Shown piece by piece: positions 4,651-38,457 of a stretch of 64,000 nt of DNA. Source of the DNA: Cystobasidiopsis lactophilus (taxonomy: Eukaryota > Basidiomycota > Agaricostilbomycetes > Agaricostilbales > Chionosphaeraceae). The stretch spans positions 496,001-560,000 of the forward strand of contig BCIO01000005.1 in NCBI GenBank assembly GCA_001599975.1. Direction: 5' to 3'. A model generated the notes under the pieces. The model worked only from the letters and a program-made list of their open reading frames with translations. It had not been told where the DNA came from and searched no databases. Positions within the stretch are counted from its first letter, which is position 1, and each line of letters opens with the position of its first letter. The position numbers were made by a program, and so were the translations under genes.

Positions 4651-7068
4651 ATGGCCGACAGCGTTGCTGCTCTCGTCGCTTCGCTCTCGCAAGACAACGA
4701 GGGCGACGTTCAGACCGCCAAGGCCGTCGCTGACAGCTTGACGACGCCCGCCGCCCGCGATGCTCTGCCGCCCAATGTTTTCACGCTGATCGGACACCGC
4801 CTGGCCTCTGCGAGCTCGCCGTTGACGACGCAGCTGCTTCGTGTGGTTGGCAACGCCTGCTTTGACCATGGCAAGTGTGTTGGGAGCCAAGCTTGCGGCG
4901 AGGGCTAACAAACGAGGAGCACACAGAATCGAACCGCAAGGCCTGCGTCGAGGCCCGCATCCACGCTGCCATCGTCGACATCTGCAAGAGCATCAGGACC
5001 CTCCGCAACAGGACGAACGACCAGCTGGCCTTGCTCAGGGCGGCGGTCGGCGCTCTGCTCAACATGATCATGGACAGTGGTGCGTTGGTCTGTTACCCCT
5101 TTTGAAAACGCTTTCTCAGTCTTTAGAGTCTCGCACAGACTTTGCGCAAGCCGCCTTGCTGCAAACGGACTTCATCCCGGTCGCCCTTAGCCTGATAGAC
5201 CCGCTGGCCACTTCGCACGAGCCGCTCTATCAATTCCACCTCACCCCGGCCGGCCCTGACAGCGCGACCGCGGCCACCATCACCCTCTGGCTCTTCCGCA
5301 TCCTCCAAGAGTTGCACCATTCAGGTTCGTTCTGGTTCCCCTTCATTGACTTGGGCAATTGGCATGACGAGCTCGGTTCGAACAGAAACGCAAGCGGCCG
5401 TCATCAACAAGCAGCACTTGAGCTTCACGCCCTTGGCCCAGGTGTTCGCCGTCCTCTCCCAGCCCTCCGCCTCCCCAGCAACAACAGCCGCAGACGCCAC
5501 CTTGGCCGAGACCGAGTCCGACATTGCGTTGATCGCCGCCGAGCTGCTCGAGGCTTTCGTGCTCGACGTCGACTCGGCTCGCTTGGAACTGGCTCAACCC
5601 CGCACACTGTTCGAGCTGTTCAACTTTGTCGAGCTCGCAGCCTTGCCGTCCGGCTGGGCGGGGCAGGACGCGCTGACGAGCGACTTTGGCAACGTGAAAG
5701 CGGCCGTGTGCAAGAGCTTGACCGCCATCGCTACTGAGGACGCGGTCATGAAGGCTTGCTTTGTGGCTCCTGCTGCGACGGCAAATGGCGCCCCAGAGAA
5801 GCAGGCTGCTGGGCCGGTCGATCTGAGCTGGGTCATCCCTTGCTTGAAAGAATGGCTCGCCGGCTCCAGGGAGGACCTGGTCATCTGCGCCAGCGTCATG
5901 CTCGCCAATCTGGCCAGATCAGGTGCGCTACCGCCGTCACTTTTGTCAAATTGACTTGATACTTGAAGGGTCGCACAGATGAAACCTGCCTGGCTCTGGC
6001 GCAGCAACACAACCTCCTCCAGACGCTGACGCCGCTTTTGAGGTCCACCATCGCCTCTGAAGCGCCCGACGCTCCCAGGTCGAGCTTTCGGATCCAAGTG
6101 CTCCACGGCATCACGGGACTGCTCAAGAACCTTGCCATCCCTCGTGAGTGGCTGTCCCATTGATCTCATAGAGATTTGGTTTCATTCCTCATCACAGCCG
6201 CCAACAAAGCTGCCTTGGAAGACGCCGCTCTCACCGGCCCTCTCCTGTCCCTCCTCTCGCCCCAATACGACATTGCGCAGCCTTTGCAGGTGGCGGCCGT
6301 CGGCCTGCTCAAGAACCTGTGTTCCGGCGACCTCAAGAACTCGATCGACCTCGCCGACGCCCCGAACGCGCTGTCCATCTTGCTCGGAGTGGTGGATCGG
6401 TCGGACGACGTCCGGCTCAAGACGGAGGCTTTGCGCATCTTGGTCAACGTCATCCGCTCGCTGTGGACCATCCCTGGTGGTGCTAAAGCTGCGGTGGACG
6501 TGGCCAAGAAGAACATCTTGACCGAGACCAGAGTGTACTCGGTGTTTGCCACCTTGATCGCAACCAGCCTCAAATACCCCATCATCATCAACGAAGGCGT
6601 CGTCTCGCTCTCCCGCCTGGCTGCTACAAGCCAAACTAGTGGTACGTTTACCTCCCTTTCCTTGCTGCTTGAACAGGGGGTTGAAGTCGAAAGCCCACAG
6701 CCGACACCACCCTCCGAGCTCTGCTGGTGCCCGCGCCTACTTCAGCCTCGGCTTCCTCGTCTCCCAAAAACGCTTCAATTGCTCTTCCACCTCTTTCTGA
6801 CCTGTCATTGACGGCACCACCAAGACGGACGAGCATCCTGTCCTCGCTCGCCCAGTCGCTCGACGGGCCCTCAGACCCCAAGCGGCCCAAGCTGGCGGAC
6901 GAGATCCAGCTCAACGTCTTGGCCTTGTTCGAGCTCTTGCTCCAAAGCGCGTCGACTGGGAAAGAGGACGCCGGGGCGGACATCAAAGGCTCGGTCCAGA
7001 AGGTGGCGAGCACCGGGTCGGACAGGCTCAAAAGCAAGGCGCAGGCAGTTTTGGGGTTGATCGCTTAG
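4651..7068 (+). CDS. Armadillo-repeat protein, SmgGDS/Rap1GDS1-like
   Basis: Seven exons (4651-4870, 4927-5079, 5139-5324, 5386-5922, 5979-6143, 6198-6641, 6701-7068) give 690 residues. The protein is almost wholly alpha-helical ARM-like repeats: LRVVGNACFDH, AAVGALLNMIMDS, ASVMLANLARS, ITGLLKNLAIP, AAVGLLKNLCS, EALRILVNVIR. This spacing and the length match the SmgGDS/Rap1GDS1 family, which acts as a chaperone or exchange factor for small GTPases with polybasic tails. Intron 1 uses a GC donor (G|GCAAGT) and joins FDH to ESNRKA, as expected for the family. The last 120 residues are serine-rich and low in complexity. The exact GTPase partner cannot be told. Confidence 0.8.
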
Positions 7069-30179: not shown

Positions 30180-31410
30180 CTACTCGGTTTTCTTCGGTGG
30201 TGGCCCGTCGACAAACTTCCAAAAGTCGGTAAACTCGCGCCTGGCCAGAGCACAGAGCACCACGCTCAGCGAGCACGCCGGCGAGAGGTAGAGCCTGCAA
30301 CATTGGTCCAAGTTTAGAGCACGATGTACAGAGAGCGAAGAGAGACTTGCAAAGCTGGCTGGGCCGCCTTAAAGAGGTGCATCACCACGATGGTCAAAAT
30401 CAGGCCTAAAAGGTAGGCGGTGATGCAGGATATGTAGTAAGGCCGCGGGAAAGAGGACGTCGGTAGCAGCGCTTTGTTGTTACGATGAGCTTGATGGAAG
30501 TCGAATCGGAGGGCCAGAGCGACGACCAGGCCGGGAATGACAATGTCGCCTGTGGATAATTCGCACCTGGTTGAGTCGCGCTTTCGAAGACTCACGCAAA
30601 GAACCAGCCCACCAAGTCCAAGCATAGCAAATCCCGCTGTAGAATCCGACGAGTCCTTGGGCCAGACCATCTTGATAGGCGCTTCGAAGTCGGTCGCCAC
30701 TCTGCAGGCCAGAAACGCTCGGCCGGGCTCCATGAAAGTAGACCCAATGAGTCCACCTACGATACCATGATGGGCGTGAAGAACACAAAGTAGATGTCGT
30801 ATACAAAGAGGCCAGCCAAAAGCAGGAGGCCGGTGCGAAAGGAATCGAGGCGCAAAAGGGCGATGGTGTTGAAAGCGAACACGGTGCCAAACAGGTTGGA
30901 CAGCAGCCAGTGCTTGGTCTGAAAGTGTGCGGCAGACGCCAAGCCCGACAACGCGGCGAACAGGACGTGGTAGTAGGAGAAGCGAACGTCGAAGACCGAG
31001 TAGCGACCTTCTGACAGCGCCAGCTTGAGAGTCTTGGCCGCTACCCAGCGCGCTTTGCCCATCATCCGTTCTGCCAAGGCACTGCAGAACCTGACCATTC
31101 CGCCAAAGCCAATGCAACCCAAATAGGCGTTCAGCACGAGATTGATTAAATCCTTGCTCAAATACTTGAACGCCACATAGAGCGAGCAGAGCATGATGCC
31201 AGCCAGCACAGGGAACAGCAACGCATCGCCTGCTGTTAAGGACTCCATCTCGTCTTCATCCTCCTCCTCGTCCTCTGGCTGCTTTTCGCCCTCGAGCCCC
31301 TTCTTCTTGGCTTTCTTGGGCGCCCGGATGCTGCCTTCTGCGCCCAGGTGCAAGGGTATCAAGGCGCTAACGACGATGGCCCCATACACTTTGAGGGCTC
31401 CAGCGTCCAT
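30180..31410 (-). CDS. Signal peptide peptidase (presenilin-type aspartyl protease)
   Basis: Four exons (31410-30761, 30701-30613, 30549-30351, 30294-30180) give 350 residues. There are about nine membrane segments. The catalytic motifs are both present: YD in LFVYDIYFVFFTPIMVSVAT and GLGD in FAMLGLGDIVIPGL, followed by the QPAL motif (AAQPALLYL). This intramembrane protease of the ER cleaves leftover signal peptides and some tail-anchored proteins. An acidic lysine/glutamate loop (about residues 30-55) lies between the first two segments. The last intron has a GC donor (GCAAGT at 30350-30345); only this splice keeps QPALLYLSPA in frame. The C-terminus PPPKKTE ends in a KKxx-like context suited to ER retention. 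Confidence 0.92.
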
Positions 31411-31738
31411 GGCGGATGGTGGGCCGGGTCTGAAAGTTCATCGTTCGAAATCAATCCTGGTGATGTTTGCTGTCCCTCTTGAACTCAGTCCGTAGGGCAA
31501 GGGGAGGCAGTATAGTGTACAAGAAGGAAAGCCCAATGTCCGTTTAGGAAGCCTAGCGACGTCCGGAACTCCTTTTGAGAAGGTAAAACGCCGTCGACGA
31601 GAGATGGCCGTGTTCGCCGCCCGCCGGCGGTGAAAGAACGCCAAGAGAAAGTGGTGAACCAACAGAAGACGACATATAAGGCGAGGGTATCGCGTGCGTG
31701 GAAGTGTAAGAGAGCCTGGTGTGCAAAGTGGAAGGTGA
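31411..31738. other. Gap between signal peptide peptidase and bZIP genes
   Basis: About 330 bases. It holds the promoter of the peptidase gene and the 3' end of the bZIP gene, both on the minus strand. No gene is called. Confidence 0.5.
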
Positions 31739-32606
31739 TTAGAGCGCGGGCACGGCGCCAAAGAGCGAGTCCAGCTCCCTCGTCATCTGTTGCGGCATGT
31801 CGGTGCAGTCGACGACGTTGTCGCAGCACGGGCGCTTGCCGTTGGCAATGATGCTTTTGCTGGGGAGCTCGGTAGGGGGAGCTGGGAGGTCCAGAAGCTG
31901 GTTCGCCTAAGACCCGCGGAACACAACGGAATCAGCTGCCACCCTCTGAGATGCCAACTTCTGTCGCCTCACCGTCTGCACGTTGAAGCCAGTGTACTGG
32001 TCGCCCATGGGAGTGTACATGGGGAGGTTGAAGCTGGGGTAAAAAGTGGGAGGAGGGTAGGCCATCGGGGTAGACCAATCTTCGACCGGCCACGCGCCCA
32101 GCTGCTGCATTGACGCCGTGTACTGAAACTGGAGGTCTGACACCGGCACCTGGTACGGATCTGGCGGCGGCAAAGCCATAGCAGGCGACAGGAGCGGCGG
32201 AGGGGAAAAGGATGATGTCGAGGTCCGCGGCGATAAAGTCTCCAGCTCTTGGATCTGCTCGTGCGCCGGCCTATAATCAGCTCCTCTGGACGAGCGCAAC
32301 CCAGCGAGGCTGTGGCGAACCTTGGCCCGGAGTGCGGCGTTCTCCGCTTCCAGCTGGGCATTGGTCGACTTCAGCTCTTCGTTGCTCGCTTGCAGACCCT
32401 GGATCATGGCCGCCCGCCTGGCCCTGAACTGCCTCGAGTTCTCTCTGGACTTGGCATATTCGAGCCTGCGTGAATGTAGGCGAGTCAATAAATGTCCGGC
32501 TCAAAGCGGCTCAACCGAGGCAAACGCACGAATCGTCTTGTTTGCGGCCACGGGTTGAGAGCCGCGCTGAGCCTGCTGGCAGGGGAGCCTTCGCCTCAGC
32601 GGGCAT
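31739..32606 (-). CDS. bZIP transcription factor, candidate regulator of the adjacent arsenite pump
   Basis: Three exons (32606-32530, 32465-31973, 31906-31739) give 245 residues. The basic region is YAKSRENSRQFRARRAAM (about residues 28-46), directly followed by a leucine zipper with leucines seven apart (GLQASNEEL, KSTNAQL, EAENAAL) and asparagines at three 'a' positions. The middle is proline/serine-rich. The last exon ends with cysteines 217, 218 and 224 in PCCDNVVDCTDM and the acidic tail ELDSLFGAVPAL. It is divergent from an ACR3 pump, as ARR1/YAP8 neighbours ACR3/ARR3 in budding yeast, where the factor binds As(III) through cysteines. The basic region is not a clear Yap type, so orthology is not claimed. 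The start could lie further upstream. Confidence 0.78.
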
Positions 32607-32682
32607 GTCTGCTGTATTGCCCTGGCGAAAGTTTGCGGCTGGCGACTGGCGGTGTGACCAGAACCCACGCCAGAAGCTCGCA

Positions 32683-32695
32683 TCTCGATTCGAGA
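32683..32695. promoter_or_regulatory. 13-bp inverted repeat, candidate bZIP operator
   Basis: TCTCGA, one spacer base, TCGAGA: perfect 6-bp arms. Homodimeric bZIP proteins bind such dyads. The yeast Yap8 site is also a 13-bp pseudo-palindrome (known), though of different sequence. Confidence 0.4.
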
Positions 32696-32853
32696 CCCCC
32701 CTGTTTGACCCCCCTCTCCTACTTCTTGAACATCGGCACATTGTGGCTCGCTGCAGCCGTCGTCGAAGACAAAGATCCCACCAGCGAGAACTGTCAAAGC
32801 AGCTGCTGTACCCCCTTGTGCGCCCGCGGGAGTTTCTTGCAGCAAAAAGCTAT

Positions 32854-32865
32854 TCGAAATTTCGA
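32854..32865. promoter_or_regulatory. 12-bp perfect palindrome, candidate operator
   Basis: TCGAAATTTCGA reads the same on both strands. It lies 58 bases before the ACR3 start codon, so it would fall in or next to the 5' leader. Confidence 0.4.
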
Positions 32866-32916
32866 CGCCCTCTCCCCAGCCAGCCGCTGTCTGCTCCTCA
32901 TCCACGACTCTCAATC

Positions 32917-32955
32917 ATGACCAATGCTGGAAAACTTGGAGTCAGAAAACGCTGA
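32917..32955 (+). other. Short upstream ORF overlapping the ACR3 start
   Basis: ATG at 32917 opens a 12-codon frame (MTNAGKLGVRKR, stop at 32953-32955) that overlaps the ACR3 ATG at 32924 in another frame. If the leader starts before it, scanning ribosomes meet it first. This could damp translation. Confidence 0.4.
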
Positions 32956-34723
32956 GCTGAAAGCCAAGCGGGAGCGGCTGCAGGATGAGAACGCGGCCCT
33001 CAAGGCTCGGTTGCAAGAGCTGCAGGCAAATCGAGAGGAAGAGGAGCCAACACCTCCACGCCCGGCGGACTCTCCACCCCGGCCCGCCTCGCCCACCAGC
33101 GTGCACGATGTAGAGGTCCTACCACCAAAGTTCGAGTCGCTCAAGCTCGAGGAGGAGAAGGGCCTGCTGCCGAAGAAAACACCAAAACAACTCTGGTCGG
33201 ACCTGTCCTTGCTGGACAAGCTTTTGGCGCCGCTCGTCCTGACCTTCATGATCTGTGGCTGCGCTGTGGGGGCAACAACTGGGAAAGCTGTCCCCGACGC
33301 TTTCAACACCGTCCAGTTCTATGGCGTTTCCGCCCGTGAGTCGCATCATACAAAAACTCTCCGCGAGGCGCTGAAGATTCTTTGGATTGTTCGCTTAGCC
33401 ATCTGCATTGGTCAGTCTAGTGTTTTCAGGTCGGACGTGCTTCGTTGGCTAACGGTTTCAAACAGGCCTCATCATCATGATGCTGCCCATCCTGTGCAAA
33501 GTGCGCTACGAGTGCCTCCCGTCAATCTTCCGCGACCGCAAGATCTGGAAGCACCTCGCCGTCACCTTTGTCCTTAACTGGCTCATCGGGCCCTTCGTAA
33601 TGTTGGGTTTGGCTTGGGCAACACTGCCTGGTCAGTCGCGTGAACCTTTCAGCCCAATTTCGCATCGACTGACGGAAATCCCTTTTAGACCAACCGCAGC
33701 TTCGAACCGGCGTTATCTTGGTCGGTATCGCCCGCTGTATCGCTATGGTCAGGTTCCATTGCCTCAGTGATGTTTTCAAGCACTCAGATTGAAGAAAACC
33801 GACAGGTCATGATTTGGAACCAACTGGCGGGTGGCAACAGCGAGTTCTGCGCCATCATCGTCGTCTTCAACTCCATCCTCCAGATTGGTCTCTTTGCACC
33901 ATTTGCAGTGTTCTTCATCAACGTCATCAGCGGGGGAGGCGACCTCATCGAGCTCGAGTACGAGGACACGGCCATCGACGTGCTCATCGTGCGTGCTCTC
34001 GATTTGGCTCTGTAGTCCAGAATAGTGCTCACGCAACGGACTACAGTACCTGGCTATCCCGCTGGCTGGCGGCGTCGGCATCCGCTTCCTCGTTTGGTGG
34101 GCGATGGGCAAAGAGTTCTTAGAGAAGCGCTTCCTCCCCGCTTTCAGCCCCTTGGCCCTCGTCGGCCTCCTCTACACCATCTTTATCCTGTTTGCTTTCC
34201 AAGGTGGGTTTTTGTTGAGCCCGCAACAAATCTGTGCTCAATAACGCACGCAGGCAACCACATCGTCCACAACCTGGGGCCAGTCTTCCGCACCATGGTC
34301 CCTCTCTTCCTCTACTTCTGCATCATGTGGAGCTCGGCGTTTGCGTTCATCTTTTGGCTGGCGCGGTATCGGGACCGCGACTTTGATTACGAGACGGCCG
34401 CCGTCCAGAGCTTCACTGCCGGCAGCAACAACTTTGAGCTGGTGAGTGGCGTCATTACTGTAGGTTGATTGGAGACTAAACTTTGTGACTATACACAGGC
34501 CATTGCGGTGACGATCGCTTGTTATGGAGTTTCGAGCCCCCAAGCGCTCGCAGCGACAATAGGTCCGCCTTATTTCTCCCCTGGCCATTGCCTCTCATCT
34601 GATTGACCATCAACAGGACCTTTAATTGAGATACCTGTCATGCTGCTTCTGGTCTACGTCGCGCTCTACCTACGAGGGCGGCTGAACTGGAAGCACTCAT
34701 ATCGGATTCGGAATCCAGCATAG
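32924..34723 (+). CDS. ACR3: ACR3-type arsenite efflux transporter with an N-terminal leucine zipper
   Basis: Nine exons (32924-33335, 33399-33410, 33466-33630, 33689-33747, 33806-33988, 34047-34203, 34254-34441, 34499-34562, 34617-34723) give 448 residues and about ten membrane segments. Diagnostic ACR3 blocks are ICIGLIIMMLPILCKVRYE, GIARCIAMVMIWNQLAGG (with the cysteine essential in ACR3 pumps) and IACYGVSSPQALAATIGPLI. The family exports As(III)/Sb(III) across the plasma membrane. Residues 1-40 are unusual: leucines at 5, 12, 19, 26 and 33 form a five-heptad zipper with asparagine at 'a' positions 9 and 23, followed by an acidic and proline-rich linker before the first membrane helix. ATG 32924 is the only in-frame start ahead of the core. 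Confidence 0.92.
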
Positions 34724-35031: not shown

Positions 35032-36267
35032 TCAACTCTTCGCCGGACCAAAAAGATGAGCAAAAGGCATATGAGGTGCTGGCTGGAGCCAATTGAGCTT
35101 GTCGTGCTCCGTATCTTTCCCTTCGATCATATGAAAGGTGTAAATGTAGCGGGACTTCTCGCTTTCGTTTTTCTCGCTCTGTGAGACAAATCGCTTTAAA
35201 AAAGCTCTGTGCTGAGCTGACAGTGACTCTAGCCCACCTTGTGAATGACCGAGCCATCGATGAGAACGAGCGAGCCGGCCTTGCACTCCTCAAGCTTCCA
35301 ATCCGGCGAAGCCGCCCAGTCAACCCCACATGGCGCCTCGTTCGTGCTGACAAACTCAGTCCCGCTATTGTCTAGCTTGCGCACAAAACGGGAGCTGATC
35401 TTGTTCACTTTGTGGGAGCCGGGCACGAATGAAAGGGCGCCGTTGGTCGACGTGCAATCCTCAAGCGCAAACCAGAAGCCTTCAAATGGGTTCAATATTC
35501 AGAATGGAGGGTTGAAGCAGAAAACGAGCCATACCTAGTGCCGAGAGTGGTTTGGTGTACAAGAACCTGCGAGCCAAGGTTTGAGTGATCTTGATATCAG
35601 AAGCAACGCAAGGGATTCAAAGACTCACGTCGAGTCATCGTGTATACTGACTGCGTGTCTGGGTCAGCGTGTTGACCGTGTGGTTGGCAAGGAAGATGGT
35701 TTGCACCTTTGCCACCTATACGCGGCTGCTTGCAGATCTGGCAGTCTTCGCGCTAAGCTCAGCTCAAGATACGCTGACCAATAGAACGCACGACCATAGA
35801 TTGGAGTACTAGAGGAGCAGGAACACTAAGACACAACATTCATGCAAGCAGCATGACAGCTCACCCAGCGGATCTTTGTGGTAACCCAATTGCTTTGCCA
35901 ATTCCCTCAGGTCCTCGTTCTCCAGAGTAAACTTGCGGTACGGCGGGGACAGTTCGTGCAGAGCGTGACCGATCTTGTTGACCGCGAGCTCTTTTGGGCG
36001 GGTCAGGTTGCCGTTCTCGTCAAAGGCGTCCTCCTCGAAGAACGTTCGGATCTTGTCGTTCGAGTTCAGGAACCAGTCAGAGCCCACTTGCTTATCGCCT
36101 GTCGAGAATGTGGTCTTGGGATGCGACTCCAAGTCGAAGTCGGCGAGGATCGAGTGCGCTTCTGACAGAAGCTCGCTCCGGGTCGCGGCATCAACGAAAT
36201 CGGGCACCACAAGGTACCCTTGTTCGTAAAACTGCTCTCTGGCTTCCTGGCTGAGCTTGAAGGGCAT
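35032..36267 (-). CDS. Phytanoyl-CoA dioxygenase family (PHYHD1-like) Fe(II)/2-oxoglutarate oxygenase
   Basis: Seven exons (36267-35865, 35808-35795, 35737-35707, 35650-35629, 35566-35535, 35479-35238, 35178-35032) give 296 residues. Blocks in order: GYLVVPDFVDAATRSELL, LGYHKDP, LQSMICKQPRIGGKV, the iron-binding HxD in SIHDDSTFLYTKPLSALG, GFWFALEDC, the second ligand histidine in IDGSVIHKSEKNESEKSRY, and YTFHMIEG. This is the PHYHD1 pattern, a cytosolic oxygenase whose natural substrate is unclear. Four central exons are only 14-32 nt; the splice chosen at each one is the one that restores the HDD and QSM blocks. Confidence 0.88.
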
Positions 36268-36440
36268 GACGGCGGCGGACCAAAAGTCGCGCTCCTCCGC
36301 AGAAATCTTTTCCAGCCGAAGGAGTCAACGCTTGTACTAGCTCCATCAGAGCTCTCGTGAGTCTGCCGTCTGCTGTAACATCTGCCTAGACTAACAGAGG
36401 GTGTGCCGATATACAGACCACTACCGTCAATCAATCAAAC

Positions 36441-38457
<2,017 letters not shown>

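What the first reader, a model, noticed from the sequence alone, without database searches (positions are those of the whole stretch)
32924..33050. Arsenite pump with a built-in leucine zipper, next to a bZIP factor with a matching zipper
Seen: the ACR3 protein starts with leucines at residues 5, 12, 19, 26 and 33 and asparagines at 'a' positions 9 and 23, a canonical five-heptad zipper, before an acidic/proline linker and the first membrane helix. The divergent neighbour is a bZIP factor whose zipper has the same style (AENAALRAKV versus DENAALKARL). Known: ACR3 pumps normally lack such an extension, and yeast couples ACR3 with the bZIP Yap8. Inference: the pump may bind the factor directly and tether it at the membrane when little As(III) is present, giving feedback between efflux and transcription, or the zipper may be a captured bZIP fragment.
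Basis: partly seen in the sequence, partly recalled or inferred. Interest (0 to 1): 0.82.

Follow-up and report, generated by a model that had tools for sequence, protein, structure and literature searches.

The report
Arsenite pump with neighbour-like zipper
A fungal-type arsenic-export pump begins with an extra leucine zipper whose closest match found in its own genome is the zipper of the gene regulator encoded right beside it, which suggests, but does not prove, that the pump can grip its own regulator.

Summary
ACR3 (9 exons, 32924-34723, 448 aa) starts with a zipper: Leu 5/12/19/26/33, Asn 9/23. AlphaFold2 gives a confident helix at residues 2-39, then a low-confidence linker. It passes TIGR00832. 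The only other ACR3 found in this genome (384 aa) lacks the extension, and 0 of 80 bacterial ACR3 tails, mostly actinobacterial, hold even three heptad leucines. New here: in a genome-wide six-frame search the extension's best non-self match is the divergent neighbour's zipper; the reverse search lists the pump second among non-self matches. The match runs ungapped from Met to Met, 13/30 identical, BLOSUM 71 against at most 46 elsewhere in the DNA sampled. Heuristic pairing ranks the neighbour first of nine genome bZIPs. But significance is weak (E 0.07, 0.024), two PDB sequences score higher, DNA similarity is gone, self-pairing scores as well, and no fungal relatives were available. Leading reading: an old zipper captured from, or matched to, the neighbour, acting as a membrane-anchored bZIP decoy. 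Pump self-association or trafficking is an equal rival.

The parts
32924..34723 (+). ACR3 arsenite efflux transporter, 9 exons (32924-33335, 33399-33410, 33466-33630, 33689-33747, 33806-33988, 34047-34203, 34254-34441, 34499-34562, 34617-34723), 448 aa
   Evidence: GT..AG introns of 50-63 nt joining one open frame; TIGR00832 E 2.8e-98, 329.3 bits over cut-off 282.8, residues 94-429
32924..33043 (+). N-terminal leucine zipper, residues 1-40
   Evidence: heptad leucines and Asn at a; helix 2-39 in AlphaFold2; best non-self match in the genome search is the neighbour bZIP zipper
33044..33202 (+). proline-rich linker with acidic clusters, residues 41-93, with EEKGLL (77-82), an acidic-dileucine-like motif (motif recalled)
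   Evidence: protein; pLDDT 51-60 over residues 41-100; 11 Pro, 8 acidic and 7 basic residues in 41-85
32917..32955 (+). out-of-frame upstream ATG and 12-codon ORF overlapping the zipper start
31739..32606 (-). divergent bZIP-like factor, 3 exons (32530-32606, 31973-32465, 31739-31906), 245 aa
   Evidence: nine best of 12 PDB matches are bZIPs; bZIP_2 E 0.0068, below cut-off
32318..32407 (-). bZIP zipper matching ACR3 residues 1-30, ungapped, 13/30 identical
31805..31828 (-). C-terminal CC-x5-C: the only three Cys of the bZIP (217, 218, 224), candidate As(III) site
   Evidence: function inferred from Yap8
32607..32923 (.). 317-bp shared intergenic region (between start codons) with palindromes TCTCGATTCGAGA (32683-32695) and TCGAAATTTCGA (32854-32865)
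   Evidence: 2 palindromes with arms of 6 or more, 0.154 expected, P 0.014

Best explanation
The pump carries a real, probably translated N-terminal leucine zipper akin to the zipper of the adjacent, divergently transcribed bZIP, most simply an old inverted local copy whose start codon corresponds to an internal Met codon of the bZIP (inferred). The zipper lies in the cytosol on a flexible linker (topology recalled for the ACR3 family; disorder predicted). Because it has no basic region, pairing with the bZIP would give a dimer that cannot bind DNA and is anchored in the membrane. When As(III) induces both genes, the rising amount of pump would hold back the factor and limit its own induction; at low As(III) it would help keep the factor out of the nucleus. 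Shown: gene model, zipper, its rank against the neighbour's zipper. Inferred: capture, binding, tethering, induction, feedback.
For: Searching the 22.1-Mb genome in six frames with residues 1-90 lists two non-self matches up to E 10: the neighbour's zipper (E 0.07, 35% over 49 aa) and another place (E 2.2) (only the three candidates of the tool's first look were scored). Searching with the bZIP lists the pump's N-terminus at E 0.024. Ungapped score 71 against at most 46 for any other place in 170,211 stop-free 30-mers of the DNA then held; the 11 other bZIP segments score 2-35 in bZIP register; non-core shuffle P 0.0007, within-heptad-class shuffle P 0.0068. From the bZIP side 71 against 49. 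Heuristic pairing: neighbour 17.3, eight other genome bZIPs 3.5-12.0; e/g charge shuffle P 0.035. The paralog has no extension and no match to the bZIP near it. The bZIP has exactly three Cys, clustered. Yeast Yap8 binds As(III) directly and ACR3 transcription depends on it (PMC11050377, passages).
Against: E-values are marginal; in the bZIP search a C2 stretch matching mostly beyond the zipper ranks slightly above the pump (E 0.017 against 0.024). The neighbour's phmmer score, 15.5 bits, is beaten by two of 177,635 PDB sequences, an M protein (16.1) and MafG, itself a bZIP (15.6); the zipper also matches several unrelated coiled-coil families weakly, so homology is not proven. No DNA similarity remains: 49 of 90 nt ungapped, local alignment P 0.35. 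Pump homodimer scores 18.0, no worse than the heterodimer. Start-codon context is poor. No multimer prediction, RNA or fungal relatives were available.
Confidence: 0.33

Rival explanations
1. The extension serves the pump itself: a parallel coiled coil that dimerises or clusters pumps, with the linker acting as a trafficking and endocytosis tail. Its likeness to the bZIP zipper is historical or incidental.
For: Homodimer score 18.0, the highest of the pairings of this zipper that were scored. In yeast the negatively charged Acr3 N-terminus is speculated to bind alpha-arrestins that promote its degradation, and a cited title calls the acidic tail an endocytic sorting signal (PMC11050377, passages). 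The linker is predicted with low confidence, as disorder would be, and holds a dileucine-like motif (motif recalled).
Against: Does not explain why the best match found in the genome is the adjacent gene. The linker is nearly neutral overall (8 acidic, 7 basic), unlike an acidic tail. Arg at the central a position (R16) disfavours self-pairing in principle (recalled rule).
Confidence: 0.33
2. The two zippers are unrelated and alike only because both are canonical ENxxL[K/R] coiled coils.
For: Two PDB sequences score above the neighbour. DNA similarity is absent. ENxxLK is a common zipper motif (recalled).
Against: 11 other bZIP segments of this genome score 2-35 in register against 71; non-core shuffle P 0.0007; top ungapped score from both sides.
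Confidence: 0.2
3. Gene-model error: the zipper frame is mostly untranslated because the upstream ATG at 32917 captures ribosomes or an unseen exon supplies the real N-terminus.
For: Upstream ATG with A at -3, main ATG with C at -3, 7 nt apart and out of frame.
Against: The frame is open, its codon usage fits coding sequence, its heptads are intact, and no other in-frame ATG of exon 1 precedes TM1.
Confidence: 0.12

Closest known systems
Yeast Acr3 (Arr3) with Yap8 (Arr1)
   Same: ACR3 pump under a bZIP; the yeast ACR3 promoter is bidirectional (shared with ACR2); Yap8 departs from the conserved basic-region Asn (Leu26), as Ser does here; the yeast N-terminus is negatively charged (PMC11050377 and PMC3865217, passages seen).
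   Different: No N-terminal zipper on the yeast pump is mentioned in the passages seen; the factor here is not shown to be orthologous to Yap8 and does not share its three distinctive basic-region residues.
GABA-B receptor with ATF4/CREB2 and ATFx
   Same: A membrane protein that binds bZIP factors (PMC9954556 and PMC3275753, passages and cited titles); that its coiled coil is the contact is recalled.
   Different: Receptor, not pump; C-terminal coiled coil (recalled); the partner is not an adjacent gene (recalled).
Bacterial transporters that tether regulators (EIICB-Glc with Mlc, MalK with MalT), recalled
   Same: A transporter that holds a transcription regulator at the membrane.
   Different: No zipper and no domain shared with the regulator (recalled).
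Plant little-zipper microproteins (ZPR), recalled
   Same: A zipper without a DNA-binding part that poisons zipper factors.
   Different: Free small proteins, not fused to a pump.

Membership tests
ACR3 arsenite efflux family | Match to TIGR00832 over its curated cut-off | tested here: met
   329.3 bits against 282.8, residues 94-429
ACR3 arsenite efflux family | Cys in the P/R-C-T/I-AMV motif | tested here: met
   RCIAMV, R at residue 212; motif described in PMC12860867
ACR3 arsenite efflux family | As(III) export activity | not testable with these tools
   needs an assay
bZIP (neighbour) | Match to Pfam bZIP_1 or bZIP_2 over cut-off | tested here: not met
   bZIP_2 16.9 of 22.3 bits; bZIP_1 12.9 of 27.6
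bZIP (neighbour) | Basic region followed in register by a leucine zipper | tested here: met
   ungapped PDB alignment with GCN4, residues 9-58 of the query, E 0.025; four heptad leucines
bZIP (neighbour) | Invariant Asn of the basic region | tested here: not met
   Ser aligned with the GCN4 Asn; Yap8 has Leu there
Yap8 | Leu26, Ser29, Asn31 pattern | tested here: not met
   Ser, Asn, Arg at the matching places (read)
Yap8 | Direct As(III) binding | not testable with these tools
   three clustered Cys only
Membrane-tethering partner of a bZIP | Physical binding of membrane protein and bZIP | not testable with these tools
   no multimer prediction; heuristic score only
Captured bZIP zipper | DNA or protein homology to the donor | tested here: inconclusive
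   protein score outlier but E 0.07 and no DNA similarity

The most novel reading that the evidence does not exclude
A transporter gene acquired the dimerisation domain of its own divergently transcribed regulator and became a membrane-anchored decoy for it, so that the pump itself is the negative-feedback arm of its own transcription.
Probability: 0.25. Interest if true: 0.85.

Novelty: new variant of a known kind. Interest (0 to 1): 0.55.

Why it matters
If true, it is a minimal feedback device in a eukaryote: the effector carries the regulator's own dimerisation interface, so a local copy of about 100 bp would be enough to create a protein-level feedback loop. It would also give fungal arsenic resistance a post-translational control beyond the Yap8 model. 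Even if pairing is only between pumps, a zipper-bearing ACR3 is an unusual build: the extension is absent from the genome's second ACR3 and no heptad-leucine tail was seen in the 80 bacterial relatives examined.

Tried and rejected
Viral contigs searched for ACR3 relatives: 61 stretches matched a pattern, none confirmed. PDB search with the full pump: no match up to E 1. That query and those had a small error at one splice junction (SARLAICIG for SAPICIG); the protein was corrected and the NCBIfam search rerun, while the Pfam and PDB searches with the full pump were not rerun. DNA-level search for an inverted duplication: nothing significant. tRNA scan of the window: none. Literature: no paper in the held library combined ACR3, coiled coil, arsenite and N-terminal extension; the two holding arsenite, ACR3, leucine zipper and N-terminus are a Yap8 paper and a Yap review by title and start of abstract. 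Searches, with other terms, listed two papers each; of these I saw passages of PMC12860867 and one of its sections and passages of PMC11050377. Those searches are the only basis for saying that I found no report of a zipper on ACR3. Rfam, promoter-consensus, tandem-repeat and fold-library searches were not run.

Rows left out of counts: of 17 PF00170 matches, 11 entered the zipper table. L011, L013, L014, L015, L016 and L019 were left out as not bZIP-like or cut by an intron, but stayed in the six-frame background. Searches used eight of those 11 (L006, L010, L017 too short). The PF00170 search also missed the window's own bZIP, so its silence near the paralog says little, and the bZIP list of this genome is surely incomplete. 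Searches examined the 80 loci kept of 103 relatives; by their titles most are Arthrobacter and kin; start sites are mechanical; 66 of 80 tails are 28 residues or longer; the pump itself is flagged by the same test. One search was a script that failed on a formatting error and was rerun, extended. The 180 kb of background contains overlapping loci. The pairing score uses my own simple weights, recalled from general coiled-coil rules, not a published calibrated model.

Full report
Observation. The window is C5:496001-560000 of a 22.1-Mb genome in eight contigs for which no relatives are held; from its short spliceosomal introns and gene content I take it to be a fungus (inference). The finding's coordinates are right. 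ACR3 runs from 32924 to 34723 in nine exons, the eight introns GT..AG, 50-63 nt, joining one open frame of 448 residues. TIGR00832 matches residues 94-429 at 329.3 bits against a cut-off of 282.8, so 93 residues precede the family domain. Residues 1-40 form a five-heptad zipper with d = L5, L12, L19, L26, L33 and a = L2, N9, R16, N23, L30. Composition shuffles reach five heptad leucines in 0.12% (residues 1-85) and 0.024% (residues 1-40) of cases. AlphaFold2 on exon 1 alone gives a confident helix 2-39, a low-confidence linker and a helix 87-119 at the first membrane segment; a single-sequence model supports the helix, not a partner.

Is it translated? The zipper frame has coding-like codon usage, about 1.2 standard deviations above random windows, and ATG 32924 is the only in-frame ATG of exon 1 before the first membrane helix, with a stop just upstream. 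Against this, the start context is poor and a better-placed ATG lies 7 nt upstream out of frame, opening a 12-codon ORF that overlaps the zipper. Leaky scanning would be needed. This remains open without RNA data.

Is the extension normal for ACR3? A search for the SBF/ACR3 family finds one other ACR3 in the genome, on C4, minus strand. Rebuilt, it has 384 residues, is 73% identical to the first, passes TIGR00832, and begins 23 residues before the domain, with no zipper. Of 80 bacterial ACR3 loci fetched (of 103 confirmed; mostly Arthrobacter and kin by title), none has even three consecutive heptad leucines in the tail upstream of the membrane domain; 66 of the 80 tails are at least 28 residues long, and the pump itself is flagged by the test. 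Two Hebeloma ACR3 proteins have 399 residues (PMC12860867, section 13 read). No fungal survey could be made.

The neighbour. On the minus strand, with 317 bp between the start codons, lies a three-exon gene of 245 residues. It has a basic region and four heptad leucines aligned ungapped with GCN4 (E 0.025); the nine best of 12 PDB matches are bZIPs. But it falls below Pfam's bZIP cut-offs, where ZapB, also below its cut-off, ranks above bZIP_2; it was missed by the genome scan with bZIP_1; and it has Ser where GCN4 has the conserved Asn. Yeast Yap8, the ACR3 activator, also departs at that place (Leu26; PMC3865217, passages), but the other Yap8-specific residues do not match. The bZIP has exactly three Cys, at 217, 218 and 224, a plausible As(III) site by analogy with Yap8, which binds As(III) directly (PMC11050377, passages).

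Relation of the two zippers. A six-frame search of the whole genome with pump residues 1-90 lists, beyond itself, the neighbour's zipper (E 0.07) and one other place (E 2.2); only the candidates of a loose first look are scored. The bZIP search lists the pump N-terminus at E 0.024, just behind a C2 stretch at E 0.017 that matches bZIP residues 69-162, mostly beyond the zipper. The zipper match is ungapped and starts at Met in both proteins: 13 of 30 identical, BLOSUM62 71. In bZIP register 11 other bZIP segments score 2 to 35; the best of all other 30-mers in the sampled DNA is 46; shuffling non-core residues gives 40 +/- 9, P 0.0007, and shuffling within heptad classes P 0.0068. From the bZIP side the pump is again first (71 against 49). 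Calibrated against PDB the resemblance is less striking: 15.5 bits, with two of 177,635 distinct sequences higher, an M protein and the bZIP MafG. At DNA level 49 of 90 nucleotides agree, third codon positions at 12 of 30, and local alignment is not significant. I judge pure chance unlikely, but old capture cannot be told from convergence towards a partner.

Could they pair? With simple weights of my own, the pump-neighbour dimer scores 17.3, eight other genome bZIPs 3.5-12.0, pump homodimer 18.0, bZIP homodimer 15.5. All four charged g-e' contacts of the pair are attractive; shuffling e and g residues reaches this in 3.5%. So the neighbour is the preferred bZIP partner by this rule, but self-pairing is as good. 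If the zipper came from a homodimerising bZIP, pairing with the donor would come for free (inference).

Mechanism. I favour, at about one in three, a membrane-anchored zipper decoy giving negative feedback, and hold pump self-association or trafficking equally likely; in yeast the negatively charged Acr3 N-terminus is speculated to recruit alpha-arrestins for degradation (PMC11050377, passages), although the linker here is nearly neutral. The shared intergenic region holds two palindromes of 12-13 bp where 0.154 are expected (P 0.014); the paralog's 400-nt upstream region has none of that arm length, but shares two 10-mers with it (0.335 expected), one of them ATTCGAAATT at -85, inside the second palindrome's neighbourhood. 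The 14-mer ATTCGAAATTTCGA occurs once in the genome, which at its length is unremarkable. These are leads for the factor's binding site only.

Verdict.

Noticed in passing
32683-32695 and 32854-32865: Two perfect palindromes with TCGA cores in the shared promoter; ATTCGAAATT (32852-32861) also lies at -85 of the paralog ACR3 in L026.
   Followed up: partly
31805-31828: Only three Cys in the bZIP, clustered as CC-x5-C near the C-terminus: candidate As(III) sensor.
   Followed up: partly
32917-32955: Overlapping out-of-frame upstream ORF with a better start context than the pump's own ATG.
   Followed up: partly
L026 minus strand, about 5631-5681: Second intron of the paralog ACR3 uses a GC-AG boundary in my model.
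   Followed up: no
30757-31437 and 35229-37633: Flanking genes look ordinary: signal peptide peptidase, PhyH dioxygenase, HMGL-like enzyme; no further arsenic gene among the five flanking ORFs scanned.
   Followed up: partly
33149-33172 (ACR3 residues 76-83): Acidic dileucine-like EEKGLL in the linker, a possible sorting signal (motif recalled).
   Followed up: no
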